Assembly (NCBI GenBank): GCA_017540905.1
Contig: JAFYAC010000019.1
Span: 1-33,189, forward strand
From: Kiritimatiellia bacterium
Lineage (GTDB): Bacteria > Verrucomicrobiota > Kiritimatiellia > CAIQIC01 > Lenti-01
DNA length: 33,189 nt
Direction of reading: 5' to 3'
A model generated the notes under the pieces. That model had not been told where the DNA came from and did no database searches. It saw only the letters and a list, made by a program, of their open reading frames with translations. Positions within the stretch are counted from its first letter, which is position 1. Each line of letters begins with the position of its first letter. This document shows positions 1 to 28,012 of the stretch, piece by piece. A program made the translations under genes and the position numbers.

Positions 1-1236
1 GACGCGCTGGAGAAGCCTGCACGTGCCGTTCGTGTCCACATGCATCATGACGCTCATCTTCAGCGTTCCGCCGGCCTTCACGGGGATGGAATTGGTATCG
101 TCGATCCAGGTGACCTGCGTAAGCGCGATTTCGCCGATCCAGAGTCCGGTCGGATAGGCGACGACGCGCTGCGACACGGGCGCCACGTAGATCGGAAGCC
201 GCACACGCATCTTGCTGCCTGCGGGATCCTCGATCGTCAGAATCGCCCCGCGTTCCATTCCAGGCCCGAGCTGCGAACGGTCGAGGCTGAAAATCTGCTC
301 CGAAATCTCGTCCGGCTCAAGCGAAACGCTCCAAGCCACGTTCTCTTCGACGTTCGTGTAGCCTATCTCGCTGAGCGCATCGACGCGCGGCAGACGGCGG
401 GAGATCGGCGGCGGCTCCAGCGCCCCGTACGGTTCAGACCTCTCCATCTTGATGGTGAACGTGTGGTTCGTCGTGCCGCAGTTCTGGATCTTGATCGACG
501 CATAGCTCGCATTGGGCCCGAAATAGACGGCGTTGCCCTGCACGCCGATCACGCCCGGCCATTCGCCGTCGCAGGTTGACGTAAGCGCGTACGCCTTGCC
601 GCTGGCAACCGGCGTCTGACGGCCAAAGGAGCCCTCCGCGCTCTTCAGGACGGGCCGGGTCTCGTCCATTCCGCTGATGGCGCAGATCGACCGACCGGAC
701 TTCGTCAGCCCGAACGGACCCTCGCCGAAATAGGCGTCGATCGGAACCGCTGCCTCGGCGGACGACACGCCGACAAGGTTGAAGTACTCGTTGGTTTCGG
801 CGGACGACACCTTGCGCCACGTCATCTTCGGCGCCGACGGCACGCCGTAGATGTCTTTCGTTGCCGTGTTCGTGGCGAAGAGCAGATACGTGCCGCCGCC
901 GGCAATCGACTGGAGTGTAGAGCCGGTCTTGCCGCGGACCCACTGCAGATAAACGACCGGTGCCTGGACAATCTCGTTGCCGCTCGCGTCATACTGCGCT
1001 GTCGAGGCGTCCGCGTCGCTGCGGTAGGCCGCCGCAGAGATGACAGGCGTATTGGCGAAGAACTCGTCGCACAGCGCATTTGTCGGCGTACACTCGATGT
1101 AAACCGCATTCCACCCGTTCGTCAGGTTCAGCGTCTCATGCACATACGGCATCGCGTAGAGTGTAAAGTGTAAAATGTAAAATGTAAAACATAACAGGTA
1201 AGGTATAAGTTTCCTTGTTTGATTTCGTGTTCTCAT
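1..1236 (-). CDS. Exported protein of unknown function, C-terminus beyond the window
   Basis: The minus frame stays open for 412 codons from ATG at 1236 to base 1, with no stop, so the C-terminus lies outside. AAAGGAG sits 9 nt before the ATG. The first 28 residues form a signal peptide: basic start MRTRNQTRK, a hydrophobic core and an LYA cleavage site before MPYVHETLNLTNGWN. The core codons (plus 1159-1190) are a simple TTTTACA-type repeat, so this hydrophobic stretch is repeat-derived. The mature part is beta-rich looking, with an LxxGWNAVYIE segment near its start that resembles the GWN-type opening of other PVC surface proteins; that is a memory-based impression. It follows the gene ending at 1295 by 58 bp on the same strand, probably in one operon. 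No enzymatic motif was seen. Confidence 0.75.
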   Translation of the reverse strand, partial: MRTRNQTRKLIPYLLCFTFYILHFTLYAMPYVHETLNLTNGWNAVYIECTPTNALCDEFFANTPVISAAAYRSDADASTAQYDASGNEIVQAPVVYLQWVRGKTGSTLQSIAGGGTYLLFATNTATKDIYGVPSAPKMTWRKVSSAETNEYFNLVGVSSAEAAVPIDAYFGEGPFGLTKSGRSICAISGMDETRPVLKSAEGSFGRQTPVASGKAYALTSTCDGEWPGVIGVQGNAVYFGPNASYASIKIQNCGTTNHTFTIKMERSEPYGALEPPPISRRLPRVDALSEIGYTNVEENVAWSVSLEPDEISEQIFSLDRSQLGPGMERGAILTIEDPAGSKMRVRLPIYVAPVSQRVVAYPTGLWIGEIALTQVTWIDDTNSIPVKAGGTLKMSVMMHVDTNGTCRLLQRV

Positions 1237-1296
1237 TTCTCAAATCTCCTTTTCTTTCACTTCCACTTTACACTTTCCATTTTACACTTTACACTC
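1159..1296. repeat. Inverted simple-repeat arms flanking the start of the 1236 gene
   Basis: GAGTGTAAAGTGTAAAATG at 1159-1177 is the exact reverse complement of 1278-1296, a 19-bp perfect inverted repeat; both arms belong to GTGTAAA(A)-type arrays of 7-8 bp units. In the minus-strand transcript one arm lies between the upstream stop and the ribosome binding site, and the other encodes the signal-peptide core. The loop holds the SD and the ATG at 1236. Confidence 0.8.
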
Positions 1297-2167: not shown

Positions 2168-2243
2168 TTTTTCATTCTCCATTCTACGCTTTGCGTTCTG
2201 CTTTTGCTCTGTTTACACATTCACCTCAAATAGGTTACAACAT

Positions 2244-3677: not shown

Positions 3678-3680
3678 TTC

Positions 3681-3797
3681 TTTCTCAACCTTTCAACTTT
3701 TCAACCCTTCAACTCTTCAACCCTCAAACCTTTCAACCTTTCAACTTTTCAACTGTTCACTCCTTCAACCTTTCAACCTTTCAACCTTTCAACCCTC
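3681..3797. repeat. Tandem array of 8-bp YTTTCAAC units between divergent genes
   Basis: About fourteen units in strict 8-bp register (CTTTCAAC, TTTTCAAC, CCTTCAAC and variants) fill the region between the divergent starts at 3677 and 3825. The same unit recurs at 4210-4302, 6728-6804, 12436-12500 and 12548-12583. Units abut with no spacers, so this is not CRISPR. Confidence 0.9.
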
Positions 3798-3824
3798 AGA
3801 GTGAAGACGTGAAAGGGTAGCGAA

Positions 3825-4208
3825 ATGGGCGTATTCAAGACATTTGAAGAGATCAATGCGTGGCAGAGGGCCAGGGTTCTCGTCAAAGAGGTCTATGCGA
3901 TGACGGGATGCGGGGAGTTCAGCAGGGACTACGGGTTGAAGGAGCAGATCCAACGCGCGGCCGTTTCGATTTGTTCAAACATCGCCGAGGGGTTCGAGCG
4001 GCGCGGCAACAAGGAGTTCATCCATTTCCTTTGGATCGCCAAGGGGTCTGCCGCCGAGGTCTGCTCGCAATTGCACAACGCAAAGGATATTGGCTACATC
4101 ACGGACGAACAGTTCAAATCCATCTACGATTCCGCAAGGCAAGTCGGAGGGATGCTGTTCAATCTCATAACCGTTCTTTCTTCCGACGAAAGGAGGACCA
4201 AGCAATGA
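3825..4208 (+). CDS. Four-helix bundle protein (S23/TIGR02436 family)
   Basis: The 127 residues match the family from end to end: an N-terminal FEEINAWQRARVLVKEVY helix, the YGLKEQIQRAAVSICSNIAEG signature (here C replaces the usual P in SIPSNIAEG), then EFIHFLWIAKGSAAEV and a fourth helix. The family was named from 23S rRNA intervening sequences and also resembles the DGR accessory protein Avd; its general role is unknown. There is no rRNA, reverse transcriptase or template/variable repeat pair here, so neither context applies. TGAAAGGG sits 7 nt before the ATG. The stop overlaps the start of the giant gene (ATGA at 4205-4208), so the two are translationally coupled. Very high confidence in family, none in function. 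Confidence 0.93.
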   Translation: MGVFKTFEEINAWQRARVLVKEVYAMTGCGEFSRDYGLKEQIQRAAVSICSNIAEGFERRGNKEFIHFLWIAKGSAAEVCSQLHNAKDIGYITDEQFKSIYDSARQVGGMLFNLITVLSSDERRTKQ

Positions 4209-4269
4209 ACCGTTCAACTTTTCAACCCTTCAACCTTTCCACCCGCCATCCGTTGAAGACCCTCCTTTC
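4188..4269 (+). promoter_or_regulatory. Strong SD of the giant gene with a 9-nt complement in its early codons
   Basis: AGGAGG at 4191-4196 lies 8 nt before ATG 4205 and decides the start although the frame is open further upstream. GAAAGGAGG (4188-4196) is exactly complementary to CCTCCTTTC (4261-4269), within the repeat-rich signal-peptide codons, so the mRNA can fold over its own ribosome binding site. Confidence 0.6.
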
Positions 4270-7200
4270 AACTTTTCGACTTTTCAACCTTTCAACCCTC
4301 GCCGGGGTCGTCGTGGCGGCGCTATGCGCGGCGACGGCCGCCGCTGCCGCGGTCCCCGCTGATACGGAATTGACCCTCGGCGAGGTGGGGTTGCCCGTGT
4401 GGATGCCGGCGTACGGGGCGGCGTACCGGCAGCCGTCGTCGGTCTATCCGATTTCGGCCGCGCGGGCGCCGGTGGAGGACGGGCAGCGGGTCACGTCCGT
4501 CTCGGACAAGAACGCGGCCGTGAAGTGGGAACTTGCGGCGTGGACGGCCGGCCGCACGCTCTCGGAGCAGCCGCCGGACCTCAAGCTCGGCGACACCTGC
4601 ACCGCCATTCCGATGGACCCGGAAAGCGTGGACTGGGACCGGACCATCGCCGCGAACGCCGCCGCCGTCGCCGCCGGGCGCCTGCTGTTCGACATGGGCG
4701 CGGCGGACCCGGCCGAACGCCTCATCTTCACCGCCAGCGGCGCGACGGAGGTGGCGTGGGTGTCGGCGTCGGGCGAGACGGTCAAGCAGGTCTATTCGGT
4801 CGGCAGCTTCTCGTCGGCCCGCCCGTACCGCATTTTCGCGACGCGCGTGGACGAGGCGAATTCGGCCGCGTTCATCGACCTCAGCGGAAAGTTCGTCTCG
4901 TTCTTCGGAGACCCGAACCTGCTGCGGCGCGAGTACAGCGTGCGCACGGGGGGCGTCTCCAACGTGGTGTACGGCATCGACTACGATCCGTCGAACACGA
5001 AGCTCCTGACCGTCCGCTACACGGTGGACGAGCAGACGGGCAAGATCCACTGCCCGCAGGGGCAGCTCGTGATGGCCTACTACGACACGGAGACGAAGGA
5101 CCACATGGTCGCCCACGTCGTCGTGGAAATCTGCCCGCCGAACGTCACGACGCTCAGCGCCGACGTCGGCCAGTGCCTGCGGCCCGCCGGCGGCGGCTAC
5201 AGCGCGACGGAGAAGCTCTACTGCGTCGCGGCCGCCGGGCTCTCGGCCGACGACAACGACCCCTACTCGCCCTACCTCGAGCAGTACAGCGCCCCCGGGG
5301 GCGAGGAGTCGACCGACCCCGACCACGGCAAGATGTTCGCCATCGTCCCGACCGACGTCACCACCAGCCAGTCCGGCATGGCCATGCCCTGGAAGGCCGA
5401 CATCTACTGGCAGACCGAGGACCCGATGAAGACGCGCTGGACCTTCGAACACGACTGGTACCTCGTCAGCTGGCCCGCCGACCCGCTGCGCGTCGTGGTC
5501 GCCCCCGCGGGCGCCCAGGCCGGGTGCCCCGTCATCGTGCCGACGAACTACGTGGTCAAGACCGGCTTCAAGATGCCGGCGGACGTCTCGGCGGTCCCCG
5601 ACGACAACACCGGCGAGCTCGCGCTCAACGGCGCCGACCGCGGCAAGGTCCTCGTCAAGCTCCTCAACGCGAACGGGAAGGGCTGCCCCTCCTACCTGCC
5701 GATCGAGCTGACGGACTACCGCCGCGAGGAGGTGGCCTCGCCGCGCGCGTTCGAGTGGGCGGTCGGCGTCGAGCTCTCGCCGCGCATCGGCCCCGAGGCC
5801 GGGCCGGCGGCGCGGGCGATGTCCGAGCGGGTGGACGACAAGCTGCCCGGCTACATCTACGAGCCGGAATCCCCCGCCCGCAACTGGAACCCGCGCCTCT
5901 ACCACAAGCCCGCCGGCACCCCCGCCCTCGGCGCCGTCGACGTCCCCACCGCGGACGAGCTGGCGGACGAGGCGGTGAACGGCGCGGACGACGACCCCTT
6001 CGCCTCGCTCCAGTCCGCCATCTACCCCGTCAACGAGGTCCGCAACGCCAAGATCCAGGTGTGGTGGCGCGCGAACTTCCGGACGCCCCAGATGCCCACC
6101 CCCGTCACGTACCCCGCCCTCGTGCAGAACTACAACGCGACGTGGGACATGACGATGGCGGACGGCTTCCTGCCGACCATCGCGCTCTCCTCCCAGCTCG
6201 GTTCGGCCGACCCGGAGATGACCGCCTGGACCGGGCGCTCGCTGCTGCTCGTCGAGTCGAATTCGACGGCGGCCGTGGACCTCGGCGGCCGGCGGCTCGG
6301 GACGAACGCGCCCTCGGCGGCCGTCGCCTTCGCGTGCTACGTCTCGCCGGACGGCGACGCGACGCCCGGCCGCCTCGCCGGGTGGCGCTTCGGCGGGAAC
6401 GGGGTGGATGACGCCGCCTCGATCGAGGCCGTGCTCGAGCAAGGGGCGGACGACGCCTTCCGGATCGTGTTCACGGCGAAGGACGGGGACGCGGTGACCA
6501 ACGAGACCTACGCAGTCGAGCCCGGCCGGTGGACCGAAGTCTCGATGGAGGTCCCCGCGGGCGCCTTCGGGCAGGACGCCACGGTCACCTACGGCGCGAC
6601 GGACGCCTCGGCCGGCGATTCCGCGACCTTCGTGGCCCTCGACGACCTCGGCCTCTTCTACTGCGACGCGACCAACGTCATCGGCACTTTCTATTCCTTT
6701 GACTTCACCTCCGACGACTTGCACACGGTTGAAAAGTTGAGTGTTGAAAGCTTGAATGGCGACGAAGAGAAGCTTTCAACCTCCCAACTTTCCAACCTTT
6801 CAACTGGCGGCGAAGCCGCTGCGTCCGTCAGGACCGCCTCCGACGACGAGGGCAACATCCTCACCTGCCGCAACTGCTCCGTCGCCGCCGCGGGCGCGTC
6901 CCGCGACTTCGAGCTGGTGCTCCCGCCCGGCAGCCAGCCGGCGCCCGAAATCTACTACCAGAACGACCCCGCCGAAACCGGCTACAACCCGAACGAAGAG
7001 CACGCCTTCGTCGATTCCGGCCCCGGCGGCTACGTCGTCTGGGCGCTCCGCAACGACCTCAACACCGAAACCTCCTCCAAGCCGGTGGTGATGGTGATGT
7101 ACGGCGAAAACGGCAAGGGCCGCATGCAGGCCTTCGCCGTGGAGACGAACTCCATCGCCCATTCCAGGATGGAGAGCGAAGCCGTCGTCGGCAACATGCT

Positions 7201-10200
7201 CCTGCCGCCCGCCCCCGTCGGGCGCCTGGCGGGGAGCCAGACGGCCATCGACGCCACGTCGTCGGCCTTCGGCTTCGAAGACAACGCCGTCGCCTACCGC
7301 GACCGCAAGAACGGCCTCTGGGCGCGGCGCGACGGCATCGCCTACGCCAAGTACGGCTACCCGATGCAGAGCGGCTTCTTCTTCCCCTCCCTCGACGAGC
7401 AGCCCGCCCCCGGCACCCCCATCGCCTGGCTCGCCTGCCGCGGCATCCCGAATCCCACCCTTGCCCAGATCACCAACACCGCCAACGCCGTCAACTGGAA
7501 GTGGACCGCCAACTGGCCCGAAAACGTCCCCGAACTCAAGATCGGCCAGGTCCTCACCAAGGCCGCGCAGGGGCTCCCCGAGATGTGGAACGCCGCCTCG
7601 ATGGCCGTCTGCTACCCGAACCCCTCGCCCTCCAACGTCGCGGCCGGGGCCTCCAGCGGCGCGACGGTGGTCGAGCTCATCGATCCGACCGTCAAGCAGA
7701 CCTCCGCGACGCCGCTGCCCGTCAAGGCGAGCTTCCCCGACGAGTACGGCTTCATCCTCGGCCCCTCCGGCACCACCTTCCTCCGCAAGGGCAAGTACTA
7801 CTTCACCGGCCTGCCCCCCTCCATCTCCGACCGTTTTTATGTCACCGTCGAGGACGGCGGCCTCCTCGCCCCCGGCCTGAACGCGCGGATGAACCTGATT
7901 GGCCAGTACGTCGAAAAGGAATCCGGCGGCTCCTACCTCGAACTCAACGTCCTCACCGCCGAGGAGCGCGACGCCATCAAGAAGCTCTGCAAGCTCGACC
8001 CCGCGCAGCGCAAGGCCGACGTCGACAACTGGAACGCCGCCGCCGACGCGCTCGCCGTCACCGAAGTCAAGCCCTCCCCGCGCACGAACCCCGGCGAACC
8101 GGTCCAGACCACGAACAGCAAGGAGATGATCCTCGCCTTCCCGAGCTGGAGCCTCTACGAGCAGTGGCTCGACAAGGTCGCGAACGACGAATCGCCGCTC
8201 GCCACGGACCGTTTTGTTGTCGACAAGTACGCCTTCAGCGAGCTCGGCACCCAGTGGACCGTCGTCGCCGGCAAGCCGGTCAAGGGCGACAACCTCGTCT
8301 TTGCGACCTGGACGAACACCTCGACCAGCCAGCACCTCGTGGGCACGACGCGCCGCGCCGCCGCCAAGAAGCTCTACGAGGAGCTCGGCCTGAACACCTA
8401 CCTCGGCAAGGAATGGGACGACGTCAGCCCCAGCAAGTACACCTGCTGGATCACCTACGTGCGGGGCACCTTCACCTGGACCGGCGAGGAAAAACCCGCC
8501 GCCAACACCTACCTGCCGCGCGACCACTATGCCCTCGTCGCCGACGGCACCGGCACCGGCTACGTCACCCTCATCGAAAACGACAACCCCGACCCCACGC
8601 AGGTCTCCGAAGGCCTCCCCGTGCGGATGCACGTCATCAAGGTCGTCCCCGAGCTCTACGCCGACGGCATCGCCGTCCTGAACGATCCCCTCAACAAGCT
8701 CTCCGAAAAACTCACCCTCCTCTACCGCACCCCCCTCGGCTCCTCCGCCGACAAGTACGAATTCCAGTGGTGCTACACCACCCCCGCCACCGACGGCACC
8801 GTCCCCGGCAAGGGCACCGACGCCTGGAAGGACAAGGCCATGGACACCGGCCTCGTCTCCGTCCAGCTCGGCCTCAACGGCGCCAACCTCCAGGACTACG
8901 TCAACACCTACTACACCCTCCGCTACCGCCCCGTCCGCGACTCCGCCACCTGGAACCTCCTCGCCGCCGCCCACCCCGACTGGACCGACGCCGACTTCTG
9001 GAGCCCGTGGGCCGACGAGCAGCTCGCCGAAGGCTGGCTCCAGCGCGTCCTCAACTCCCTCACCCCCTTCGCCCAGCGCGTCGAGGACTTCTACAACGAG
9101 CGGAGCGACATGGGCTTCTCCATGCTCGAGCAGATCGGCGGCCCCTACCAGGGCGACGTCGCCCTCAACAACGACAACCTCTCCGAGGTCGGCCTCCTCG
9201 AGCTCTACCAGACCGTCTTCAACCGCGCCGAGTCCCTCCTCGTCGCCGCCGGCGGCAACAACATCGACATGTCCAAGCAACTCATCCTCGCGCAGACCCG
9301 CATGGGCGAGTTCTACACCCTCCTCGGCTCCGAGGCCTATTCCGACGCCAAGAACCCGCTCATCCCCGCGGGCGCCGGCGGGGAACCCTTCGCCTCCGGC
9401 ACCTTCTCCTTCGCCAACCAGGTCCCCTCGCTCCTCGACGAGGAACTCGCCCTCCTGCGCGGCCGCACCAAGGCCACCGCCTTCCCGCGCATGACCGAGG
9501 CGCCCCTCTACAACCGCCTCGCCTGGAACCTCACCAAGGGCATCACCGAGGGCGAGCCCGCCTACGTCGCCAACTACGGCATCCGCGCGCGCGGCGGCGT
9601 CCTCGACGTCAACTGCGCCGCCGCCCAGTACCCCCAGGGCCACGGCGACGCCTGGGGCCACTACCTCTCCGCCCTCTCCGGCTACTACCGCCTCCTGAGG
9701 AACCCCTACTTCGACTGGGCCGCCGCCATGGGCGAGATGCTCATGGACCAGAAGCTCGTCAACGTCGACTACCAGGACGAACAGAAATTCGCCGACGCCG
9801 CCGTCCGCCTCGTCCAGACCGGCGAGGACGCCATGGACCTCACCCTCCGCAAGGCCTGGAAGGAAAACGGCGGGGACATCGCCGCCGCCTACTTCGACGC
9901 CGACCCCGAGCAGGCATTCGGCTACGGCGAATGGGCCACCCGCACCGGCCTCGCCGCCGCCTACAACTGGATGGCCGCCAACGCCCTCCTGCCCACCAAC
10001 GGCGAACCCTACGCCGCCTTCACCGACAAGGGCGTCTCCAAGATCACCCGCGAGACCGCCACCCAGCTGCCCGTCCTCGCCTCCGCCGTCCGCTCCGTCC
10101 AGCGCAAGCTCCAGGGCGTCCAGGCCGGGGCCAACCCCCTCGGGCTCTCCGCCAACGCCATCCCCTTCGACATCGACCCCGACCAGCTCGCCGCCAAGAA

Positions 10201-12433
10201 CTCCCACTTCGAGCAGATCCTCGCGCGCGCCGAAAAGGCCCTCGCCAACTGCCGCACCGTCCTCGCCTACGCCAACGAATACGGCTCCCGCCTCGCCCAG
10301 GTCGCCAAGGACGAAGAAGACGCCCTCGCCGACGCCGCGACCCAGGAGCAGGCCTTCAACAACCAGCTCATCGCCATCTACGGCACCCCCTACGCCGGCG
10401 ACATCGGCCCCGGCGGCACCTATCCACAGGGCTACGACGGACCCGACCTCTACAACTACACCTACATGGACCTCGCCCCCTACGGCCTCCTCGAAGCCCC
10501 CGAAACCCGCTTCACCAACTCCTACAAGCTCGTCCAGGCCGGCCTCTACGGCTGGGAGTACCAGCACGGACGCGACTGGGAAGGCGACATCGAAACCAAC
10601 AAGTACGAAGAAATCCCCGTCAACTACATCGTCAACGAAGGCGGCATCCGCCTCAAGCCCGCCACCCTCGCCGGCGCCCGCCGCTCCGAGGGCACCATCC
10701 AGGCCGCCTACCGCAACTACCTCAAGGCCTACCTCAAGGTCCAGGAGACCATCGGCGACTACGACACCAAGATGACCATCCTCAAGGAGACCTGGAAAGC
10801 CGTCCGCGAGCAGATGATCCGTTTCTCCGTCAACACCCCCGTCACCCTCGGCGCCCAGATCTTCAAGGAAGTCATCTGCTGGACCGGCACCGAAGACCTC
10901 CTCGTCGACGGCGGCAAATTCGTCATCGACGCCATGAAATTCGACAAGGACATGCTCGCCTACTGCGTCCCCGCCGTCCAGGGCACCGGCCTCACCGTCA
11001 CCGTCGACCCCCGCGCCATGGCGCAGGCCGTGAGCGCCTCCCCGCAGGGAACCGCGTTCCACACCCTGATGGGCCAGGTCTACACCGCCCTGGCCACGCG
11101 CTACGCCAAGAAACTGAAAGCCTCCTACGCCGACCTCGTGACCGGCTTGAGCGAGGCCGTCCAGGGCGCCCTCGACCTCTTCCGCAAACTCGAGACCACC
11201 ATGGAGACCGCCGCCATGGACGTCAACCTCGCCGCCGCGGCCATCCAGCCCTCCTTCGCCGACCTCGCGGCGGCCGAGGCCGCCTACCGCGCCGAAGTCG
11301 AGAAGGGCGAACAGCTCCAGGAACAGCGCGCCCTCTGGCGCCAGCAAGTCTCCAACCGCGCCACCGCCCAACGCTACCTCGACATGTACAACCGCGTCCA
11401 GCGCAACCTCGCCCTCACCAAGTACTCCACCGCCTTCGACACCGCCCAGCGCTACGTCTGGGAGCTCGCCAAGGTCTACGACTACGAAACCGGCCTCCTC
11501 TCCTCCGACCCCCAGGCCGGCAAGCAATTCCTCGCCGACATCGTCGCCACCCGCTCCCTCGGCCAGGAAGGCGTCTCCATCGCTTCCGCCACCACCGACG
11601 GCGGATTGTACGACGTCGTCAACCGCATGAAGGCCAACTGGGACGTCCTCAAGCCCCGCCTCGGCATCAACAACCCCGACAAGCCCGCCAAATGGTTCTC
11701 CCTCCGCCGCGAACTCTTCCGCATCAAGGAAGGCGCCGCCGGCGACGAAGCCTGGAAGAAGGAACTCGCCAAGTACCGCGTCGACAACATCCTCGCCGAC
11801 GCCGAATTCGCGCGCCACTGCCAGCCCCCCGCGAGCGAAAACACCCTCGTCTTCCGCGAGCCGGGCTACATCATCCCCTTCTCCACCTCCATCAACAGCG
11901 CCGAGAACTACTTCGGCAAGACCCTCCAGTTCGGCGACCACCAGTTCTCCAGCTCCGACTACGCCACCAAGATCGACGCCGTCGGCGTCGACCTCGTCGG
12001 CCTCGACGGCCTCGAAGGCGGCGCCGGTGTCGAACCCAACATCTACCTCGTCCCCGTCGGTACCGACTACATGCGCTCGCCGGCGGGCACCGAACGCGCC
12101 CTCCTCGGCTGGAACGTCGTCGACCAGGTCCTCCCGCTGCCCTACACCGTCGGCTCCGCCGAACTCGACGCCCGCGACTGGATCTCCACCTTCTCTGGCC
12201 TCGACGGCACCACCGACGCCACCGCAACCATCCGCCGCCATTCCACCCTGCGCGCCGGCCCGGACTTCAAGTCCACGCGCCTCGTCGGCCGCAGCGCCTG
12301 GAACGACCGCTGGCTCCTGGTCATCCCCGCCTCCGCCATCGACGCCGACACCGACAAGGCCATGAACCTCATCGAATCCGCCGTCACCGACATCCGCCTC
12401 GGCATCCGCGCCTACGCCCGCAGCGGCAACTGA
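4205..12433 (+). CDS. Giant exported protein, 2,742 aa, unknown function
   Basis: Start ATG 4205 follows a perfect SD and overlaps the upstream stop. The N-terminus is unusually long: about 35 residues encoded by YTTTCAAC repeats (4210-4302), then a core GVVVAALCAATAAAAA before VPADTELTLGE, probably a signal peptide. Residues about 50-830 look beta-rich, including a possible LamG-like sandwich (about 700-830). A repeat-derived, Ser/Glu-rich linker occupies about 842-868. The second half is mostly helical with distinctive blocks: GEFYTLLGSEAYSDAKNP (about 1700), YPQGHGDAWGHYL (about 1810) and DIGPGGTYPQGYDGPDLY (about 2066). The region after 2,330 is Ala/Glu-rich and coiled-coil-like; the last 200 residues are again beta-like. 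Cysteines are few and no catalytic motif is evident. GC is very high with strong C-ending codons, and there is no frameshift in 8.2 kb. It is probably a very large surface or secreted protein; I do not recognise a named family. Confidence 0.88.
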   Translation: MNRSTFQPFNLSTRHPLKTLLSTFRLFNLSTLAGVVVAALCAATAAAAAVPADTELTLGEVGLPVWMPAYGAAYRQPSSVYPISAARAPVEDGQRVTSVSDKNAAVKWELAAWTAGRTLSEQPPDLKLGDTCTAIPMDPESVDWDRTIAANAAAVAAGRLLFDMGAADPAERLIFTASGATEVAWVSASGETVKQVYSVGSFSSARPYRIFATRVDEANSAAFIDLSGKFVSFFGDPNLLRREYSVRTGGVSNVVYGIDYDPSNTKLLTVRYTVDEQTGKIHCPQGQLVMAYYDTETKDHMVAHVVVEICPPNVTTLSADVGQCLRPAGGGYSATEKLYCVAAAGLSADDNDPYSPYLEQYSAPGGEESTDPDHGKMFAIVPTDVTTSQSGMAMPWKADIYWQTEDPMKTRWTFEHDWYLVSWPADPLRVVVAPAGAQAGCPVIVPTNYVVKTGFKMPADVSAVPDDNTGELALNGADRGKVLVKLLNANGKGCPSYLPIELTDYRREEVASPRAFEWAVGVELSPRIGPEAGPAARAMSERVDDKLPGYIYEPESPARNWNPRLYHKPAGTPALGAVDVPTADELADEAVNGADDDPFASLQSAIYPVNEVRNAKIQVWWRANFRTPQMPTPVTYPALVQNYNATWDMTMADGFLPTIALSSQLGSADPEMTAWTGRSLLLVESNSTAAVDLGGRRLGTNAPSAAVAFACYVSPDGDATPGRLAGWRFGGNGVDDAASIEAVLEQGADDAFRIVFTAKDGDAVTNETYAVEPGRWTEVSMEVPAGAFGQDATVTYGATDASAGDSATFVALDDLGLFYCDATNVIGTFYSFDFTSDDLHTVEKLSVESLNGDEEKLSTSQLSNLSTGGEAAASVRTASDDEGNILTCRNCSVAAAGASRDFELVLPPGSQPAPEIYYQNDPAETGYNPNEEHAFVDSGPGGYVVWALRNDLNTETSSKPVVMVMYGENGKGRMQAFAVETNSIAHSRMESEAVVGNMLLPPAPVGRLAGSQTAIDATSSAFGFEDNAVAYRDRKNGLWARRDGIAYAKYGYPMQSGFFFPSLDEQPAPGTPIAWLACRGIPNPTLAQITNTANAVNWKWTANWPENVPELKIGQVLTKAAQGLPEMWNAASMAVCYPNPSPSNVAAGASSGATVVELIDPTVKQTSATPLPVKASFPDEYGFILGPSGTTFLRKGKYYFTGLPPSISDRFYVTVEDGGLLAPGLNARMNLIGQYVEKESGGSYLELNVLTAEERDAIKKLCKLDPAQRKADVDNWNAAADALAVTEVKPSPRTNPGEPVQTTNSKEMILAFPSWSLYEQWLDKVANDESPLATDRFVVDKYAFSELGTQWTVVAGKPVKGDNLVFATWTNTSTSQHLVGTTRRAAAKKLYEELGLNTYLGKEWDDVSPSKYTCWITYVRGTFTWTGEEKPAANTYLPRDHYALVADGTGTGYVTLIENDNPDPTQVSEGLPVRMHVIKVVPELYADGIAVLNDPLNKLSEKLTLLYRTPLGSSADKYEFQWCYTTPATDGTVPGKGTDAWKDKAMDTGLVSVQLGLNGANLQDYVNTYYTLRYRPVRDSATWNLLAAAHPDWTDADFWSPWADEQLAEGWLQRVLNSLTPFAQRVEDFYNERSDMGFSMLEQIGGPYQGDVALNNDNLSEVGLLELYQTVFNRAESLLVAAGGNNIDMSKQLILAQTRMGEFYTLLGSEAYSDAKNPLIPAGAGGEPFASGTFSFANQVPSLLDEELALLRGRTKATAFPRMTEAPLYNRLAWNLTKGITEGEPAYVANYGIRARGGVLDVNCAAAQYPQGHGDAWGHYLSALSGYYRLLRNPYFDWAAAMGEMLMDQKLVNVDYQDEQKFADAAVRLVQTGEDAMDLTLRKAWKENGGDIAAAYFDADPEQAFGYGEWATRTGLAAAYNWMAANALLPTNGEPYAAFTDKGVSKITRETATQLPVLASAVRSVQRKLQGVQAGANPLGLSANAIPFDIDPDQLAAKNSHFEQILARAEKALANCRTVLAYANEYGSRLAQVAKDEEDALADAATQEQAFNNQLIAIYGTPYAGDIGPGGTYPQGYDGPDLYNYTYMDLAPYGLLEAPETRFTNSYKLVQAGLYGWEYQHGRDWEGDIETNKYEEIPVNYIVNEGGIRLKPATLAGARRSEGTIQAAYRNYLKAYLKVQETIGDYDTKMTILKETWKAVREQMIRFSVNTPVTLGAQIFKEVICWTGTEDLLVDGGKFVIDAMKFDKDMLAYCVPAVQGTGLTVTVDPRAMAQAVSASPQGTAFHTLMGQVYTALATRYAKKLKASYADLVTGLSEAVQGALDLFRKLETTMETAAMDVNLAAAAIQPSFADLAAAEAAYRAEVEKGEQLQEQRALWRQQVSNRATAQRYLDMYNRVQRNLALTKYSTAFDTAQRYVWELAKVYDYETGLLSSDPQAGKQFLADIVATRSLGQEGVSIASATTDGGLYDVVNRMKANWDVLKPRLGINNPDKPAKWFSLRRELFRIKEGAAGDEAWKKELAKYRVDNILADAEFARHCQPPASENTLVFREPGYIIPFSTSINSAENYFGKTLQFGDHQFSSSDYATKIDAVGVDLVGLDGLEGGAGVEPNIYLVPVGTDYMRSPAGTERALLGWNVVDQVLPLPYTVGSAELDARDWISTFSGLDGTTDATATIRRHSTLRAGPDFKSTRLVGRSAWNDRWLLVIPASAIDADTDKAMNLIESAVTDIRLGIRAYARSGN
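6728..6804 (+). repeat. Octamer-repeat cassette inserted in frame inside the giant gene
   Basis: GTTGAAA units (6728-6752) are followed by CTTTCAAC units (6772-6804) in the opposite orientation, with GTTGAAAGC at 6743-6751 exactly complementary to GCTTTCAAC at 6772-6780. The reading frame passes through and yields a Ser/Leu/Glu-rich stretch with no resemblance to the flanking protein. Base composition drops sharply from the surrounding GC-rich codons. Confidence 0.8.
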
Positions 12434-12435
12434 GA

Positions 12436-12583
12436 TTGAAAGGTTGAGAAGTTGAAAGGTTGAGAAGTTGAAAGGTTGAAAGGTTGAAAAGTTGAAAGGT
12501 CATTTTTTGATTGCCGTTTTGCTCTCCGTCCTCATTGTGGCTGCGGAACCTTTCAACCCTTCAACCTTTCAACCTTTCAACTC
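12436..12583. repeat. Two inverted octamer arrays around the start of the 12492 gene
   Basis: GTTGAAAGG-type units at 12436-12500 face CCTTTCAAC-type units at 12548-12583. Bases 12467-12500 and 12548-12581 are complementary at 32 of 34 positions, leaving a 47-nt loop. The left arm carries the SD-like GAAAGG and the TTG start; the right arm encodes the residues just after the signal peptide. Confidence 0.85.
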
Positions 12584-12947
12584 TTACACCAACCACGCTG
12601 GCAACGCGGTGTCCGGCACCGTCATCGCCCTCGACGCCCACACCGCGACCTTCTCCAACGCCGGGGAGGTCGTGGTGTTGCCCCTGAGCATCTTCCCCGA
12701 ATCCGAACAACGCCGCCTCGCCGCCGACTACGGCACCCCCATCCTTCCCGCCCCCATCCGCCGCGCCATCGACGGCGCCAACCGCGCCATCGCCCGCTCC
12801 CGCCAACGCGCCGCCAAAGGCCTCTGTACCCCCGAAGACAGCGCCTCCTTCATCGCCCGCACCCAATCCGCCCTCACCGCCTACCTCGACGCCCAACTCG
12901 CCTCCGGCGTCCTCACCCCCGCCGAACGCGCCGCCCTCCCCCCCTGA
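12492..12947 (+). CDS. Small exported SHD1-like protein
   Basis: The frame begins after an in-frame TGA at 12477; the best start is TTG 12492 with GAAAGG 8 nt upstream, giving MKGHFLIAVLLSVLIVAA as signal peptide (TTG 12507 is an alternative lacking the Lys). Residues about 20-32 (EPFNPSTFQPFN) are repeat-derived. The next segment, SYTNHAGNAVSGTVIALD through VVVLPLSIFPESEQRRL, fits the SLA1-homology (SHD1, SH3-like) pattern common in exported Planctomycetes and Verrucomicrobia proteins: W/Y-T-N/D start, beta strands, then a 'LPLS.L...D/EQ' ending. The C-terminal 80 residues are helical and Arg/Ala-rich. It begins 58 bp after the giant gene and probably shares its transcript. Role unknown. Confidence 0.75.
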   Translation: MKGHFLIAVLLSVLIVAAEPFNPSTFQPFNSYTNHAGNAVSGTVIALDAHTATFSNAGEVVVLPLSIFPESEQRRLAADYGTPILPAPIRRAIDGANRAIARSRQRAAKGLCTPEDSASFIARTQSALTAYLDAQLASGVLTPAERAALPP

Positions 12948-13076
12948 CCCTCCCCCTGTCCCCGTCCTGCCGGGCGGCCCCCGTGCCGCCCCCGCCCGCT
13001 CCCCCTTCCACTCCCCCCCTGACCCTCCCCCTGTCCCTGTCTTGCCGGGCGGCCCCCGTGCCGCCCCCTCCCGCTT
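12945..13076. repeat. 75-bp tandem duplication with C-rich tract and GC hairpins
   Basis: The sequence from 12945 (the stop of the previous gene) recurs from 13020 with a 75-bp period and few changes over about 56 bases. Each unit has a perfect hairpin, GGGCGGC / GCCGCCC with a 6-nt loop (12972-12991 and 13047-13066). No T-tract follows, so a classical intrinsic terminator is not shown, though the position after the operon end would suit termination. Confidence 0.8.
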
Positions 13077-13449
13077 TCCCTCACGCTTTCCCTCCCGCCC
13101 CCCTCCCTCTCTCCTCCCGTTTTCCCCCCTTTCCCCCTCCCACTTTCCGCCCACAGGGCTCATCCGCTCATTCCGGTGGCGCATCTCTGCAGAATAAGGA
13201 CATCCGCCTGGCCGCCCGCGACGCCTCCTGGTGCCCTTGACCGGCCCCCCCCCTCATCTCCCGAGCATCGCGCGGCGTTTGTCGCGGCCATGGAGGACTC
13301 CCATGGAAAAGAGGCCGATAGAAAAGGGGCCAGACCACGGCACCCTGGAGAGCGGAAGAATGTCTCACGCAAAGTCCGCAACGTCCGCAAAGTGAGCGGG
13401 ATGGAAGCGGATGGGATGGACCGACTTGGCGCCGCGGCGGGGCACTACC
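13077..13449. other. Intergenic, extremely pyrimidine-rich then plain
   Basis: Bases 13077-13160 are almost pure C/T on the plus strand (CCCTCC and CTTTCCC runs). The rest shows no gene, RNA or clear promoter that I can support. Confidence 0.5.
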
Positions 13450-13875
13450 TCATCCAAGGGATCCGGAGGAGGCAAGGTAATCGGCGGGGGAGAGTACGGG
13501 GAGCACGCCCGGAGGATAATGGGCGCGGTCGCGCGAGAGAATGCACGTGGCACCGCAGCGCAGGGCGGAGGCCAGCTGGATGTCGTCCTCGAAGTCCTTG
13601 TGCGGAATGTCGGCCGCTTCGCGGAGGATGGGGGCGTCGAGGGGAACGACGGAGAAGATGCCGAGAATCAGGCGGACGGCCGAGAGCGCGTTTTCGCGGC
13701 CGATGAACTTCGCCGCAACGTAGTGGACGTTGTTGAGGGAGATGGCCGAGACATAGCCGCGGGCGGCACCCGTCTCGCACAGGGCCCACGCCGAGGCGGC
13801 GGGCGCAAAGAATTCCGGCCGGCGCAACACGACGTCGAGGAGGACGTTCGTGTCGAAGAACAGTTTCGGCTTCAC
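13450..13875 (-). CDS. PIN-domain ribonuclease toxin (PIN_3/VapC-like)
   Basis: The 141 residues begin with FFDTNVLLDVVL, the first PIN acidic motif, and have FEDDIQLASALRCGATCILSRD, the second acidic cluster typical of PIN_3 toxins. The middle position usually held by Glu reads ISLNNVHYV, an Asn variant seen in this subfamily. PIN toxins are Mg2+-dependent RNases cutting tRNA, rRNA or mRNA. The start GTG at 13875 overlaps the antitoxin stop (GTGA, 13872-13875), so the two are translationally coupled. Length is normal. Activity is inferred. Confidence 0.85.
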   Translation of the reverse strand: MKPKLFFDTNVLLDVVLRRPEFFAPAASAWALCETGAARGYVSAISLNNVHYVAAKFIGRENALSAVRLILGIFSVVPLDAPILREAADIPHKDFEDDIQLASALRCGATCILSRDRAHYPPGVLPVLSPADYLASSGSLG

Positions 13876-14135
13876 GGGGCGAACCTTTCCGCCAGGCGTT
13901 CATCGCGGATGGCACGCCAGTCCAGGTCACCCGGGACGGAACGGGCCCCGCAGGCCAATGACAAGGCCCGGAGCGTTTTCGGTGGATAACCCGGTTCAGC
14001 CGGCAGTTCACGCCCCGCAGCCTCGACAAAGCGGGAAAACATCGACGAAATGCTTTCCCGGCGCCTTTTCGAAAGCCGCCGGGCATTCTCCAGGACAGGA
14101 CGGGGGATGCTGAGGGTGAGCTTCGTGGTGTTCAT
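13872..14135 (-). CDS. Ribbon-helix-helix type antitoxin (DUF6364-like)
   Basis: The 87 residues start MNTTKLTLSIPRPVLENARRL followed by a basic Ser-rich helix (RRRESISSMFSRFVE). This is the strand-helix-helix layout of RHH antitoxins such as DUF6364, which pair with PIN toxins. GGAG lies 9 nt before the ATG. The C-terminal half (PGYPPKTLRALSL and beyond) would wrap the toxin. It overlaps the PIN gene by 4 nt, and two ATACGTAT palindromes just upstream are the likely autoregulatory operator. Confidence 0.75.
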   Translation of the reverse strand: MNTTKLTLSIPRPVLENARRLSKRRRESISSMFSRFVEAAGRELPAEPGYPPKTLRALSLACGARSVPGDLDWRAIRDERLAERFAP

Positions 14136-17440: not shown

Positions 17441-20400
17441 GCCCGCTTCCCGACACCAAGTCCTTGGACGAGATCATCGTCGGCCGCGTCGAACCCCACA
17501 TCTACGCGTTTCTCACGACCTCCGTCCCCCGCTACCTCAAGGTCGGCGACACCTACCGCCCCGTCCCCGTGCGCATCGCCGAATGGCAGAAACACTTTTC
17601 CATCGACGCGCAACGCGATGTCTGGGATTGGCCGGCCGTGCTCGATGACGAGGTCTTCTTCCGTGACTACTCGGTCCACCAGTTCCTGCAAGACAGCCGC
17701 CACCTGGTCCGCCTGGACAAAACGGCACTGACCCGTCTCCGCCAGGGCAAGGACCTGTATTTTTCCAACGAGTTCTTCCTCGACGCCCGCAAGGAACACG
17801 TGGAAGAGGCATTGGCGGACATCAAGGACGACCACGACCATTCCACGGGCAAGTATTCGTTTTACAGCGTCAAGAACGCCGGCCGCCCCGCGGACGAAGA
17901 AGAGTTGCCGCCCCCCGTCCCCCTGACGCTCCGCCCGAACCAGCGGGAAGCGGTCGAGCGCTTCAAGGAAGCCGTTGGCGCGGGGCGCACGAACCTCCTG
18001 ATGTATGCCGTCATGCGCTTCGGCAAGACCGTCGCCGCACTGCAATGCGCGAAGGAACTGGCGGCCCGCTTCGTGGTGGTCGTTTCCGGCAAGGCGGACG
18101 TCGCGCGCGAATGGCGGAACACGGTCCTGGGCTTCACGGACTTCAAGAACCACTTCGTTTTCCTTTCGCGCAAGGACCTCGACGCCAAATACTCCCGCGT
18201 CACGGAAGAGCTGGCCGCCGGGCACAAGGTTGTCCTCTTCGCCACGCTCCAGGACCTGCAGGGCGACGCCATCAAGCCGCGCCACGAACAGATTTTCGCC
18301 AATCCCATCGACTTGCTCGTCATCGACGAAACCCACTTCGCCGCCCGCGCCGCGGAATACGGCAAGCCCCTCCGCGTTCCGCCGCAATACGCGAAAGCGG
18401 ATGCTTCGGAAGAAGCGAGCGCCGAAGACGCGGCCCAAGCCGTCAAGGCGCTCGACGCGAAAGTCCGCCTCCACCTTTCCGGCACCCCGTACCGCATCCT
18501 CATGGGCAGCGAGTTCCAAAAGGAGGACATCGTTTCCTTCTGCCAGTTCACCGACATCGCGAACGAGCAGCGGAAGTGGGACGAAGAACATCTGGGGCAG
18601 GACGAATGGGACAACCCGTATTACGGCTTCCCGCAGATGGTCCGCTTCGCCTTCAACCTCAACGAGTCCGCCCGCAAGAAGCTCCAAGAGCTGGAAGCGG
18701 ACGGCCAAACCAGCCACTTCCGCGAGTTGTTCCGCCCGGTGCGCATGGAAAAGGACGCCAGCTCCAAACAACTCCACAAGAAATTCGTCCACGAAAAGGA
18801 AGTCGCCGACCTCCTCCGGGCCATCGGCGGCTCCGCCCCCGACCCGGGAATCCTTCCCTTCCTGGACTACGACAAAATCGTGCAGGGCCAGATGTGCCAC
18901 CACATCGTCTGCGTCCTGCCCTGGTGCGCCTCCTGCGACGCCCTCGAGGCGTTGCTTTCCTCCCGCAAGCACAAGCGCAACCGCACCTTCGGCAAACTCC
19001 ACGACTACAAAATCCTCAACATTTCCGGCAAGGAGGTCAAACGGGGCTTCGTCAAGATCGCCGATGTGGCGAAGACGATCGCCGACTGCGAAACGCGGAA
19101 AGAAAAGACCCTCACCCTCACCGTCAACCGCATGCTCACCGGCAGCACCGTCCCCGAATGGGACACCATGCTCTTCCTGAAGGACACCTCCTCCCCGCAG
19201 GAATACGACCAGGCCGTCTTCCGCCTGCAAAGCAGCTTTGTCCGTTCCATGCCCGACGGCCGGGGCCGGGAAATCAAATACAACATGAAGCCCCAGACCC
19301 TGCTCGTGGACTTCGACCCGGCCCGCATGTTCCGCCTCCAGGAAGCCCGCGCGCAGGCCTACAACGTCAACACCGAGCGGAACGGCAACGCGGAACTGGA
19401 AAACCTCGTCAGACGGGAACTGGAGGTCTCCCCCATCATCCTGTTCAACAAGGACCGCATCCACCGCGTCGAGGCATCGGACGTGATGGCCGTCATCAGC
19501 CAGTATTCCGCGAAGCGCGGCGTCGCGGAAGAAGTCGAGGACATTCCCGTCGACCGCTCGGTGCTCGCCGATTCGCAGCTAAGCGCCTTCATCGACAGGC
19601 TCCCCGCCCTCGGCAGCCGGGAGGGATTGACCATCAAGCCCCACACGGGCGATGAAACGGACATCGATGCCGGGGAGGCTTCGGAAAACGGCGGCACGGA
19701 CGACGATGGCGGCACGGCACCGCCCCCCGGCGAGGACAAGGACCGGGAGGACCGCGACCGGAACATCAAGACCCTCCACGCCCTCGTCGTCTTCTATTCC
19801 TTCCTCGTGCCCGAGCGCGTCCATTCCCTCGACGAAATCCTCCAAGTCATCGACCAGGACGACAACAACCGCCGCATCGCCCGCCATCTCGGACTCACGA
19901 AAGACATCCTCGGACGCTACCGTGACAAGGTCGGCTGGCAGACTCTCCAGAAACTGGACTACAAAATCCAGAACCTCGACCGCCTCGCCAACGAGACCCA
20001 GGACATCGACCTCGGCGAAGAATACAAGGACACCCCGGAACCGGTGAAAAAAGCCGTCGTCGCCATGCGCAAGTTCGGCCGCCTCGGCGAAGCGAAGGTC
20101 GTCACGCCCCCGAACATCGCCTACGACATGGTGCGGCAGATTCCCGCCGCCGAACTGAAAACGCTGGTCGAATCCGGCGAAAAGATCCTCGACCCCGCCG
20201 CCAAGATGGGCGAATTCGCCATCGCCATTGTCCGCCGCTGCGCCGAACCCGACATCGGCCTCGCCCCCGACGCCTTGAAAACGTCGATTCTTTCCATCCC
20301 CATGTGCGGCGTCACCTACGAATTCACCCGCAAGGTCTACCAACTCCTCGGTCTCGCCCCCAAATGCATCGCCCAGCCCGAGAACATGACGACCTACGAC

Positions 20401-21546
20401 CTGCTCACGCTCCGCAAGCCCGGGACGGGACGCCCTTCGTCGCGCCCTCTCGACTTCGCCAAAATCAAACGCCTGCTCACGCAGAACAAGGACTTCGACA
20501 CCATTTCAATCGGCGACGACCTCGCCGGAGAGGATGACACCATGTGCAACAAGATTGGCCTCGTGATTTCCAATCCGCCGTATCAGGAAGACGATGGAGG
20601 GTTTGCATCCTCCGCCAGTCCTGTTTACAACCATTTCGTCGAAGCCGCCACCTCCTTCGAGCCCCGGTGTGTGACTCTCATCACGCCCTCGCGCTGGTTT
20701 GCAGGCGGCAAGGGACTTGACGATTTCAGGGCGCATTTGTTGTCCGACCATCGCATGCGCACCCTGGTCGATTTCCCGATGCTCTACGAGCCCTTCAGCA
20801 ATGTGAAGATTCGCGGAGGAATCTCCTATTTCCTCTGGGATGGCAAGCACGACGGCCCCTGCCATGTCATGACAATGGAAGGCGGAAAGCCTATTGGCGA
20901 ATCCGCTGAACGTTATCTTGACGAATTCGACATTCTCGTGCGGCGTAACGAAGCGGTTCCAATACTTCGCAAAGTTCGCGCCCTGAACGAAAAGACGCTT
21001 GATGCTAAAGTGTCCAGCCGAAAGCCTTTTGGATTTCCAACCAATTTTTTGGGAACAGAATCTGCCGAAGGAATTTCCCACCCAGTCAAGCTGTATGGCA
21101 ACCAAAAGGTGACATGGGTTGATCGTTCGGCCATCACGACAAACCCGGAATGGATCCAGGAGTGGAAAGTCTTGATGACGGCCGTGCAAGGGACCAGCGC
21201 GGCCGTGGAAACGAAGTTTCTCTCCAATCCCATTGTCGCAGGGCCGGGAACGGCCTGCACGGAAACATATCTTGTGGCCGGCCATTTCCGTTCCAAATCC
21301 CACGCCCAGAATCTCGCCAACTATTTGCGGACGCGCTTCGTGCGTTTTCTGGTTTCCCTCCGCAAATCGACACAGCACGCCACGCGCGATGTCTACGCCT
21401 TCGTCCCCCTCCAAGACTTCTCCTCATCATCCGACATCGACTGGACCCGTCCGCTTCCCGAAATCGACCGCCAACTCTACGACAAATACTCCCTCACCGC
21501 CCCCGAGCGCGCCTTCATCGAATCCATGATCAAGCCGATGGGGTGA
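17437..21546 (+). CDS. Single-chain nuclease-helicase-adenine methyltransferase (restriction enzyme)
   Basis: The protein has 1,369 residues. Residues 19-50 (PHIYAFLTTSVPRYLKVGDT then RPVPVRIAEW) look like a GIY-YIG/T5orf172 nuclease core. A superfamily-2 helicase follows: Walker A MRFGKT (193-198), DETH (297-300), SGTP (348-351) and QAVFRLQ (592-598). After an acidic linker (about 745-770) comes an N6-adenine methylase: DPAAKMGEF (about 919, motif I) and NPPY (1046-1049, motif IV). The C-terminal third is a probable target-recognition domain. The layout recalls Type ISP enzymes (LlaBIII, LlaGI), which carry an Mrr-type nuclease instead. It should methylate self DNA and translocate on and cut unmodified phage DNA. 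Codon use becomes AT-richer around 20,900-21,150, consistent with an exchanged recognition domain. Confidence 0.88.
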   Translation: MSPLPDTKSLDEIIVGRVEPHIYAFLTTSVPRYLKVGDTYRPVPVRIAEWQKHFSIDAQRDVWDWPAVLDDEVFFRDYSVHQFLQDSRHLVRLDKTALTRLRQGKDLYFSNEFFLDARKEHVEEALADIKDDHDHSTGKYSFYSVKNAGRPADEEELPPPVPLTLRPNQREAVERFKEAVGAGRTNLLMYAVMRFGKTVAALQCAKELAARFVVVVSGKADVAREWRNTVLGFTDFKNHFVFLSRKDLDAKYSRVTEELAAGHKVVLFATLQDLQGDAIKPRHEQIFANPIDLLVIDETHFAARAAEYGKPLRVPPQYAKADASEEASAEDAAQAVKALDAKVRLHLSGTPYRILMGSEFQKEDIVSFCQFTDIANEQRKWDEEHLGQDEWDNPYYGFPQMVRFAFNLNESARKKLQELEADGQTSHFRELFRPVRMEKDASSKQLHKKFVHEKEVADLLRAIGGSAPDPGILPFLDYDKIVQGQMCHHIVCVLPWCASCDALEALLSSRKHKRNRTFGKLHDYKILNISGKEVKRGFVKIADVAKTIADCETRKEKTLTLTVNRMLTGSTVPEWDTMLFLKDTSSPQEYDQAVFRLQSSFVRSMPDGRGREIKYNMKPQTLLVDFDPARMFRLQEARAQAYNVNTERNGNAELENLVRRELEVSPIILFNKDRIHRVEASDVMAVISQYSAKRGVAEEVEDIPVDRSVLADSQLSAFIDRLPALGSREGLTIKPHTGDETDIDAGEASENGGTDDDGGTAPPPGEDKDREDRDRNIKTLHALVVFYSFLVPERVHSLDEILQVIDQDDNNRRIARHLGLTKDILGRYRDKVGWQTLQKLDYKIQNLDRLANETQDIDLGEEYKDTPEPVKKAVVAMRKFGRLGEAKVVTPPNIAYDMVRQIPAAELKTLVESGEKILDPAAKMGEFAIAIVRRCAEPDIGLAPDALKTSILSIPMCGVTYEFTRKVYQLLGLAPKCIAQPENMTTYDLLTLRKPGTGRPSSRPLDFAKIKRLLTQNKDFDTISIGDDLAGEDDTMCNKIGLVISNPPYQEDDGGFASSASPVYNHFVEAATSFEPRCVTLITPSRWFAGGKGLDDFRAHLLSDHRMRTLVDFPMLYEPFSNVKIRGGISYFLWDGKHDGPCHVMTMEGGKPIGESAERYLDEFDILVRRNEAVPILRKVRALNEKTLDAKVSSRKPFGFPTNFLGTESAEGISHPVKLYGNQKVTWVDRSAITTNPEWIQEWKVLMTAVQGTSAAVETKFLSNPIVAGPGTACTETYLVAGHFRSKSHAQNLANYLRTRFVRFLVSLRKSTQHATRDVYAFVPLQDFSSSSDIDWTRPLPEIDRQLYDKYSLTAPERAFIESMIKPMG

Positions 21547-27997: not shown

Positions 27998-28012
27998 AAA
28001 ATGGGCCGAAAA

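What the first reader, a model, noticed from the sequence alone, without database searches (positions are those of the whole stretch)
12467..12581. Inverted octamer arrays could lock a start codon inside a 34-bp mRNA hairpin
Seen: GTTGAAAGG units at 12467-12500 and CCTTTCAAC units at 12548-12581 pair at 32 of 34 positions. The left arm contains the only SD-like sequence (GAAAGG) and the TTG start; the loop encodes the signal-peptide core; the right arm encodes residues after it. Translation should depend on opening this structure. Since copy number in such arrays changes by slippage, it could act as a tunable or phase-variable switch for an exported protein.
Basis: partly seen in the sequence, partly recalled or inferred. 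Interest (0 to 1): 0.72.

Follow-up and report, generated by a model that had tools for sequence, protein, structure and literature searches.

The report
Self-pairing octamer repeats around gene start
Two opposite-facing stretches of an eight-letter repeat really do pair around the start of a small exported-protein gene, but they belong to a repeat family scattered through this gut bacterium's genome, and the related genes examined lack the pairing, so it looks like a repeat-made hairpin and not a conserved on/off switch.

Summary
The arms are real: 12467-12500 and 12548-12581 pair at 32 of 34 positions and the region folds far better than shuffles (z -6.9). That the hairpin "locks" the TTG start is only half right. 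The 8-unit left array offers two near-equal registers 16 nt apart; in the minimum-energy fold of 12430-12600 TTG is outside the main stem (probability of pairing with the right arm 0.04; 0.68 with longer flanks). The pairing is not conserved: none of the 13 other matches to the 151-aa protein has a left array, and a paralogue behind the same upstream gene has a plain gap and ATG. Octamers on the right side occur in 2 of 13. The octamer is a dispersed repeat: 34-109 approximate 24-mer hits in five genomes of three genera, none in the 13 others of the family. Two observations go further: inverted octamer pairs have one polarity in 42 of 43 cases; and the layout [array - start - inverse array written into the signal peptide] recurs at another locus, kept in two species with different left-arm unit numbers, and in this window with an unrelated heptamer.

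The parts
12436..12500 (+). left array, about 8 units of TTGAAAGG/TTGARAAG, in the gap between two co-directional genes; includes the start codon
12450..12485 (+). left arm in the alternative register, 16 nt upstream (TTG outside the main stem); minimum-energy choice for 12430-12600
12492..12494 (+). TTG start codon = last octamer unit; aligns with the ATG of the paralogue (window TTG AAA GGT CAT, paralogue ATG AAA GCC ATC)
12501..12545 (+). loop; encodes the signal-peptide core HFLIAVLLSVLIVAA
12547..12582 (+). right arm, about 4 CAACCTTT units, coding (EPFNPSTFQPFNS), after the signal peptide; octamers also in the coding sequence of the G001 and G004 orthologues
12492..12947 (+). 151-aa predicted exported protein, no Pfam match up to E 10
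4205..12433 (+). large upstream gene (probably exported) whose own signal-peptide region (4207-4300) is written in octamers
3686..3797 (+). CAACCTTT array; left edge of the block syntenic with G001:C282
1267..1296 (-). heptamer array (GTGTAAA on the minus strand) upstream of the SD and ATG of the gene on the minus strand
1159..1188 (-). inverse heptamer array (TTTTACA on the minus strand) encoding the signal-peptide core FTFYILHFTLY
1..1236 (-). second exported-protein gene with paired arrays at its start (runs off the window)

Best explanation
The hairpin is made by a lineage-specific, dispersed octamer repeat (GTTGAAAG / CTTTCAAC) whose arrays grow and shrink in whole units and probably serve as joints for recombination. 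A C-rich array came first at this locus, inside the coding sequence just after the signal peptide, where it does little harm because CAACCTTT reads without stops in all three frames. A G-rich array then grew, or was copied in inverted orientation, into the gap after the upstream gene and overran the start codon, so that ATG AAA became TTG AAA of the last unit. The shared mRNA should fold into a long hairpin with two sliding registers, one covering and one freeing TTG. This probably lowers initiation in this lineage, but it is better read as a by-product of the repeat family than as a conserved switch. Shown: the arrays, both registers in silico, dispersal, absence of the left array in the homologues found, octamers in two orthologues. 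Inferred: order of events, recombination, co-transcription, slippage, any effect on translation.
For: Repeat family: 18 exact 16-mers in G000 with 0 in the reversed control; 24-mer with up to 3 mismatches 68+41 hits (overlapping hits counted) versus 2+1 controls; 34-109 hits in each of G000-G004, 0 in the other 13 family genomes, 1 hit in the remaining 79 of 97 genomes. No left array in any of the 13 non-self matches, at a threshold of 3 units with up to 4 mismatches; octamers on the coding side in 2 of 13, G001 and G004. The paralogue pair in the same genome has an ordinary gap and an ATG that aligns with TTG. Window 3682-12431 matches G001:C282 5304-14066 at 95%, and as BLAST draws them both block edges fall at octamer arrays in the window; G001 shows no octamers after the upstream gene's stop. 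Unit-number differences at orthologous arrays. Two registers.
Against: The same layout recurs at the gene start of G000:C4 and its orthologue G001:C145, with a related copy at G001:C282 that opens only a short orphan frame, and once with an unrelated heptamer in this window. That is more than a pure by-product would lead one to expect and leaves room for selection. In G001 a segment of about 6 kb lies between the upstream gene and the small gene, so absence of the left array there may be a loss. The window's start region is the most paired of those folded; thermodynamically the hairpin should matter for initiation.
Confidence: 0.6

Rival explanations
1. A true cis-acting translational switch: the hairpin hides the start, and unit number or register sliding tunes expression.
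For: Strong fold; two registers that cover or free TTG, with the balance set by flanking sequence; mean pairing around this start 0.71, the highest of eight folded; both arms kept with different left-arm unit numbers at the C4/C145 locus.
Against: No left array in 13 of 13 other matches to this protein; in the other three gene-start cases the start lies between the arms and is about as paired (0.37-0.55) as in homologues without a left arm (0.49-0.51).
Confidence: 0.15
2. The inverted pair is itself a DNA element: two outward-facing arrays around a core, copied as a unit or bounding exchangeable cassettes, including a start-codon/signal-peptide cassette; RNA folding is secondary.
For: 42 of 43 inverted octamer pairs in the fetched loci have the order GTTGAAAGG-core-CCTTTCAAC; the single exception is the seam between two tandem elements. 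Ten pairs from a Lentisphaera-labelled MAG and from G157 (possibly the same organism) share one core of 97-108 nt. A start-codon loop sequence is shared by C4, C145 and C282 (3 places in 2 of 20 genomes). One pair lies, by eye, between a terminator-like hairpin and the next gene.
Against: The window pair shares no 13-mer of its core with others; cores differ widely; no transposase, target duplication or empty site was tested.
Confidence: 0.17
3. A recent accident: the left array destroyed the normal start, the gene is poorly translated or decaying, or the pair is a metagenome assembly artefact.
For: TTG in place of ATG; 7 of 12 codon differences to G001 over 120 codons are nonsynonymous, and 31 of 55 to G004; the genome is an unnamed draft in 178 contigs.
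Against: Reading frame intact to the C-terminus and signal peptide kept; the same layout is found in two genomes at C4/C145.
Confidence: 0.08

Closest known systems
TAACTGA heptamer arrays of Beggiatoaceae, some Cyanobacteria and Bacteroidetes (PMC4679880; abstract and sections 3, 9, 10, 24 read)
   Same: One short unit tandemly repeated at many intergenic sites, often just before start codons, scattered over unrelated phyla, less often inside ORFs; proposed post-transcriptional role, unproven.
   Different: Unit length and sequence; that paper reports one indirect repeat in its main genome and predicts no particular RNA structure, whereas here inverted pairs are common, have one polarity and fold strongly, and arms enter signal-peptide codons.
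Short/long simple sequence repeats (STRR, LSSR) and phase-variable contingency loci (recalled; LSSR as summarised in PMC4679880 section 3; H. influenzae SSR paper PMC2651432 seen only in a search listing)
   Same: Unit-wise length change; 8 nt is not a multiple of 3, so right-arm changes would shift the frame.
   Different: No switching shown; arrays are imperfect (units vary), which is expected to slow slippage (recalled); pairing between two arrays.
Start-codon-hiding mRNA hairpins such as RNA thermometers (recalled)
   Same: Start region inside a predicted stem in one register.
   Different: Not conserved here; long stem of repeat units with sliding registers; the partner strand is coding sequence.
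REP/MITE-type dispersed inverted-repeat elements (recalled)
   Same: Dispersed, mostly intergenic, outward-facing arms around a core.
   Different: Arms are tandem arrays of 7-9-nt units; no transposase or target duplication shown.

Membership tests
Dispersed short-unit tandem arrays (TAACTGA/STRR type) | one short unit in tandem at many genomic sites, well above a control | tested here: met
   109 versus 3 control hits in G000; 5 of 97 genomes with 34 or more hits
Dispersed short-unit tandem arrays (TAACTGA/STRR type) | mostly intergenic, often near start codons | tested here: met
   56 of 57 array groups are not wholly inside a called gene (selected stretches of G000-G003, duplicates and groups within 150 nt of a stretch end dropped; home-made gene caller that under-calls array-coded N-termini); at least four of the 56, this one included, reach into coding sequence
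Phase-variable contingency locus | unit number varies between orthologous arrays | tested here: met
   about 8, 16 and 9 units before one orthologous gene, and different left arms at C4/C145; between species, not within a population
Phase-variable contingency locus | reversible switching of expression within one population | not testable with these tools
   no reads or expression data
Start-codon-sequestering regulatory hairpin | start codon paired in the stable structure | tested here: inconclusive
   probability of pairing with the right arm is 0.04 to 1.00 depending on the stretch folded
Start-codon-sequestering regulatory hairpin | pairing conserved among orthologues | tested here: not met
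   0 of 13 other matches have both arrays
MITE/REP-type element | repeated element with fixed outward-facing ends | tested here: inconclusive
   fixed polarity 42 of 43; 25 core clusters at a 13-mer criterion, 24 of the usual order; several short cores look related by eye
MITE/REP-type element | target duplication or empty site, partner transposase | not tested
   not attempted

The most novel reading that the evidence does not exclude
There is a so far unnamed class of bacterial element: two short-unit tandem arrays facing away from each other with one fixed polarity (purine-rich first), whose unit can be swapped (octamer, heptamer, nonamer) while the layout stays. In Kiritimatiellia it has been laid more than once over the starts of exported-protein genes, so that the pyrimidine-rich arm rewrites signal-peptide codons and the start codon sits in or beside the loop of a sliding-register hairpin that sets translation.
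Probability: 0.25. Interest if true: 0.75.

Novelty: new variant of a known kind. Interest (0 to 1): 0.5.

Why it matters
If the fixed polarity and the recurring gene-start layout hold up, they point to a mutational or selective process that makes inverted tandem arrays in many bacteria, and to a route by which non-coding repeats become signal-peptide coding sequence. The unit is the same in several phyla, as was found for TAACTGA, so the question of how such units spread becomes testable with complete genomes. At the level of this one gene the matter is modest: an uncharacterised small exported protein whose start was overrun by a repeat.

Tried and rejected
Terminator: no terminator-like site in 12200-13200; one intergenic pair (G000:C140) lies, by eye, downstream of a separate terminator-like hairpin; 4 of the 22 pair groups lie between divergently called genes. 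Rejected as a general role.

Known RNA family: in 11500-13500 Rfam gave three matches up to E 1, let-7 twice and mir-1781 once, all below their gathering scores, as a long hairpin might. Rejected.

Protein identity: the 151-aa protein had no Pfam family up to E 10, and two distant homologues only matches below the curated cut-offs. Left unnamed.

Integron-like cassettes on G000:C149, where octamers recur roughly every 1 kb: considered from the spacing, not tested.

Literature: no paper in the held library contains any of four array strings (0 papers). One search (20 of 30,204 listed) gave PMC4679880, which I opened. Searches (20 of 106 listed; 20 of 2,612; 12 of 44; 12 of 69) listed no other paper that, by title and abstract start, describes these arrays; I opened none of those, and the unlisted ones were not seen.

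First gene-calling script had training genes out of frame and was discarded; one search replaced it. First core clustering with 9-mers over-merged; 13-mers were used instead.

Polarity by exact pattern in 288 genomes of the phylum was a weak test: one genome with a hit for each polarity; the opposite-polarity hit proved to be a seam between two tandem elements.

Heptamer family: at 3 mismatches the heptamer hits in relatives are not far above the reversed-pattern control (G000 14 against 4, G001 12 against 6, G002 16 against 6), so I do not claim a dispersed heptamer family.

Full report
What is there. The window is contig C170 of a 3.5-Mb draft genome. Two contigs of G004 and two of G002 have the same lengths as named contigs of Kiritimatiellae MAGs RGIG3636 (goat rumen) and RGIG6649 (sheep rumen), so the window's genome is taken to be a ruminant-gut relative; this is an inference from contig lengths. 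Between the stop of a large gene (12433) and a 151-aa gene lies an array of about eight TTGAAAGG-like units (12436-12500). About four CAACCTTT-like units follow at 12547-12582 inside the small gene.

Two registers. Because the left array is about twice as long as the right, the right arm can pair with 12467-12500 or with 12450-12485. In 12430-12600 the second wins (31.6 expected pairs against 1.1) and TTG is paired with the right arm with probability only 0.04, though two of its bases are in local pairs. With flanks to 12350-12700 the first wins (0.68); with the stretch cut to 12446-12600 it is 0.99.

The start. TTG 12492 is the last array unit. The seven earlier array TTGs open only 3-codon frames; this one opens 151 codons. 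A paralogue in the same genome (C99, L026) lies directly behind a paralogue of the same upstream gene, with a plain gap and ATG AAA GCC ATC where the window has TTG AAA GGT CAT. This supports TTG as the true start and suggests that the array overran an ATG.

Homologues. A search of 57 genomes gave 11 with a match and 14 places, 13 besides the window itself. A scan of these 13 loci for octamer arrays (3 units, up to 4 mismatches) found none with two arms; only G001 (L016) and G004 (L017) have an array, on the coding side. G001 has ATG MRFPENALCFLFALCVLAVSLSAFVASAEPFNPST..., G004 has AAGGAG and ATG MRSSNHSLRFLFALCVLPFVLSALAQTTATPNLSTFQPFN..., G002 and the paralogue have neither arm. So the coding-side octamers are shared, and the left array is special to this lineage or was lost in G001, where about 6 kb lies between the two genes (window 3682-12431 matches 5304-14066 at 95%, window 12543-13195 matches 20137-20809 at 92%). 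In the window both edges of the large syntenic block fall at octamer arrays. After the array 12 of 120 codons differ from G001, 7 nonsynonymous; from G004, 24 synonymous and 31 nonsynonymous.

A repeat family. With up to three mismatches a 24-mer of the array has 109, 86, 53, 34 and 77 hits in G000-G004 (overlapping hits counted; reversed-pattern controls 3, 1, 0, 3, 2), none in the other 13 genomes of the family and one hit in the remaining 79 of 97. In selected stretches of G000-G003 (duplicates and groups within 150 nt of a stretch end dropped) 56 of 57 array groups are not wholly inside a called gene; the gene caller trims array-coded N-termini, as it did here. Single arrays between co-directional genes are C-rich in the sense direction in 15 of 18 groups (two of the 15 are really inside coding sequence, 4207-4300 and its G001 counterpart). 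Some end directly at the start codon (TTTCAACCATG at L234, L048, L250, L051). One orthologous gene has about 8, 16 and 9 units before the same SD in three species (L235, L249, L252).

Inverted pairs and polarity. In 260 partly overlapping loci (1.36 Mb, chosen by octamer, heptamer and homology hits) 43 inverted octamer pairs with distinct cores of up to 250 bp were found; 42 have the order GTTGAAAGG-core-CCTTTCAAC. The one exception (G157, L256) is the seam between two tandem elements of the usual order. Cores fall into 25 clusters at a 13-mer criterion, 24 of the usual order, but several short cores look related by eye and ten pairs share one long core, so independent origins are fewer. A wider search for inverted pairs with tandem arms of any unit, on the loci then held, found 29 octamer pairs, all purine-left, and nine others, eight purine-left; two of the nine are octamer variants and the ninth (L107) is slightly pyrimidine-left. 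I cannot explain the polarity.

The same layout elsewhere. At G000:C4 (L011) and its orthologue G001:C145 (L244) a G-rich array, by eye about 8 and 11 units, ends just before ATG; a C-rich array of about 4 units in both encodes part of the signal peptide (in L011 MKNLQNMSCHKDKTMKTTHGHFSTFQPFNLSTLSALLAAALCAATSSA), with the start between the arms. The loop sequence recurs once more, at G001:C282, where it opens only a short orphan frame before another gene. In this window, heptamer arms 1159-1188 and 1267-1296 (93% complementary) do the same for a minus-strand gene starting at 1236: one arm lies before AAGGAG and ATG, the other encodes the signal-peptide core FTFYILHFTLY. The 11 homologues whose starts I printed, of 22 non-self places, show by eye other signal peptides and no heptamer pair; some have other short repeats in the gap. 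In a search of 30 genomes the heptamer pattern with up to 2 mismatches was found only here, while 3-mismatch hits are not far above the control, so these two arms probably derive from each other. Around the start the mean pairing probability is 0.71 at 12492; 0.38 (heptamer), 0.37 (C145) and 0.55 (C4) in the other gene-start cases; 0.51 at the orphan copy; and 0.49, 0.51, 0.51 in three homologues without a left arm. Hiding the start is therefore not a shared feature, though this gene's start is the most paired.

Verdict. The regulatory reading is possible for this lineage but not supported by conservation at this locus. The better account is a dispersed octamer family that has made a hairpin here, with two wider regularities, polarity and gene-start layout, that deserve a proper census. 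I read PMC4679880 (abstract and sections 3, 9, 10, 24) as the closest described case; other papers were seen only in listings.

Noticed in passing
1159-1188 and 1267-1296: Second inverted short-tandem pair, heptamer TTTTACA, around the ATG at 1236 on the minus strand; one arm encodes the signal-peptide core.
   Followed up: yes
4207-4300 and 6777-6800: Octamer arrays inside the large gene: in its signal-peptide region (MNRSTFQPFNLSTRHPLKTLLSTFRLFNLSTLAG) and in mid-protein.
   Followed up: partly
28009-28085; also L026 near 1340-1460 and L014 near 7660-7800: Clusters of the palindrome TTTTCCAATCATTGGAAAA, another dispersed repeat.
   Followed up: no
12936-13148: Nearly two copies of a 75-bp unit and a long pyrimidine-rich stretch just after the 151-aa gene; 12936-13195 is matched in G001:C282.
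   Followed up: no
L014 (G000:C149) 600-7700: A block of about 150 bp with octamers, a GCGCC hairpin and a promoter-like CTTCTGCTAGAC recurs before several small genes, some apparently exported.
   Followed up: partly
G001:C282 14066-20137 (L253/L254): About 6 kb between the large gene and the 151-aa gene in G001, absent from the window; by recalled motifs it looks like a DUF262/DUF1016-type segment (not tested).
   Followed up: no
3825-4208: Free-standing 23S rRNA-intervening-sequence protein (PF05635, E 8.4e-36) next to the large exported-protein gene.
   Followed up: no
23754-23943: 49-nt imperfect inverted repeat rich in CGGAGG around 92 nt.
   Followed up: no
L256 (G157:C154): Octamer-bounded elements with shared 108-nt cores standing in tandem, like those of the Lentisphaera-labelled MAG.
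   Followed up: partly
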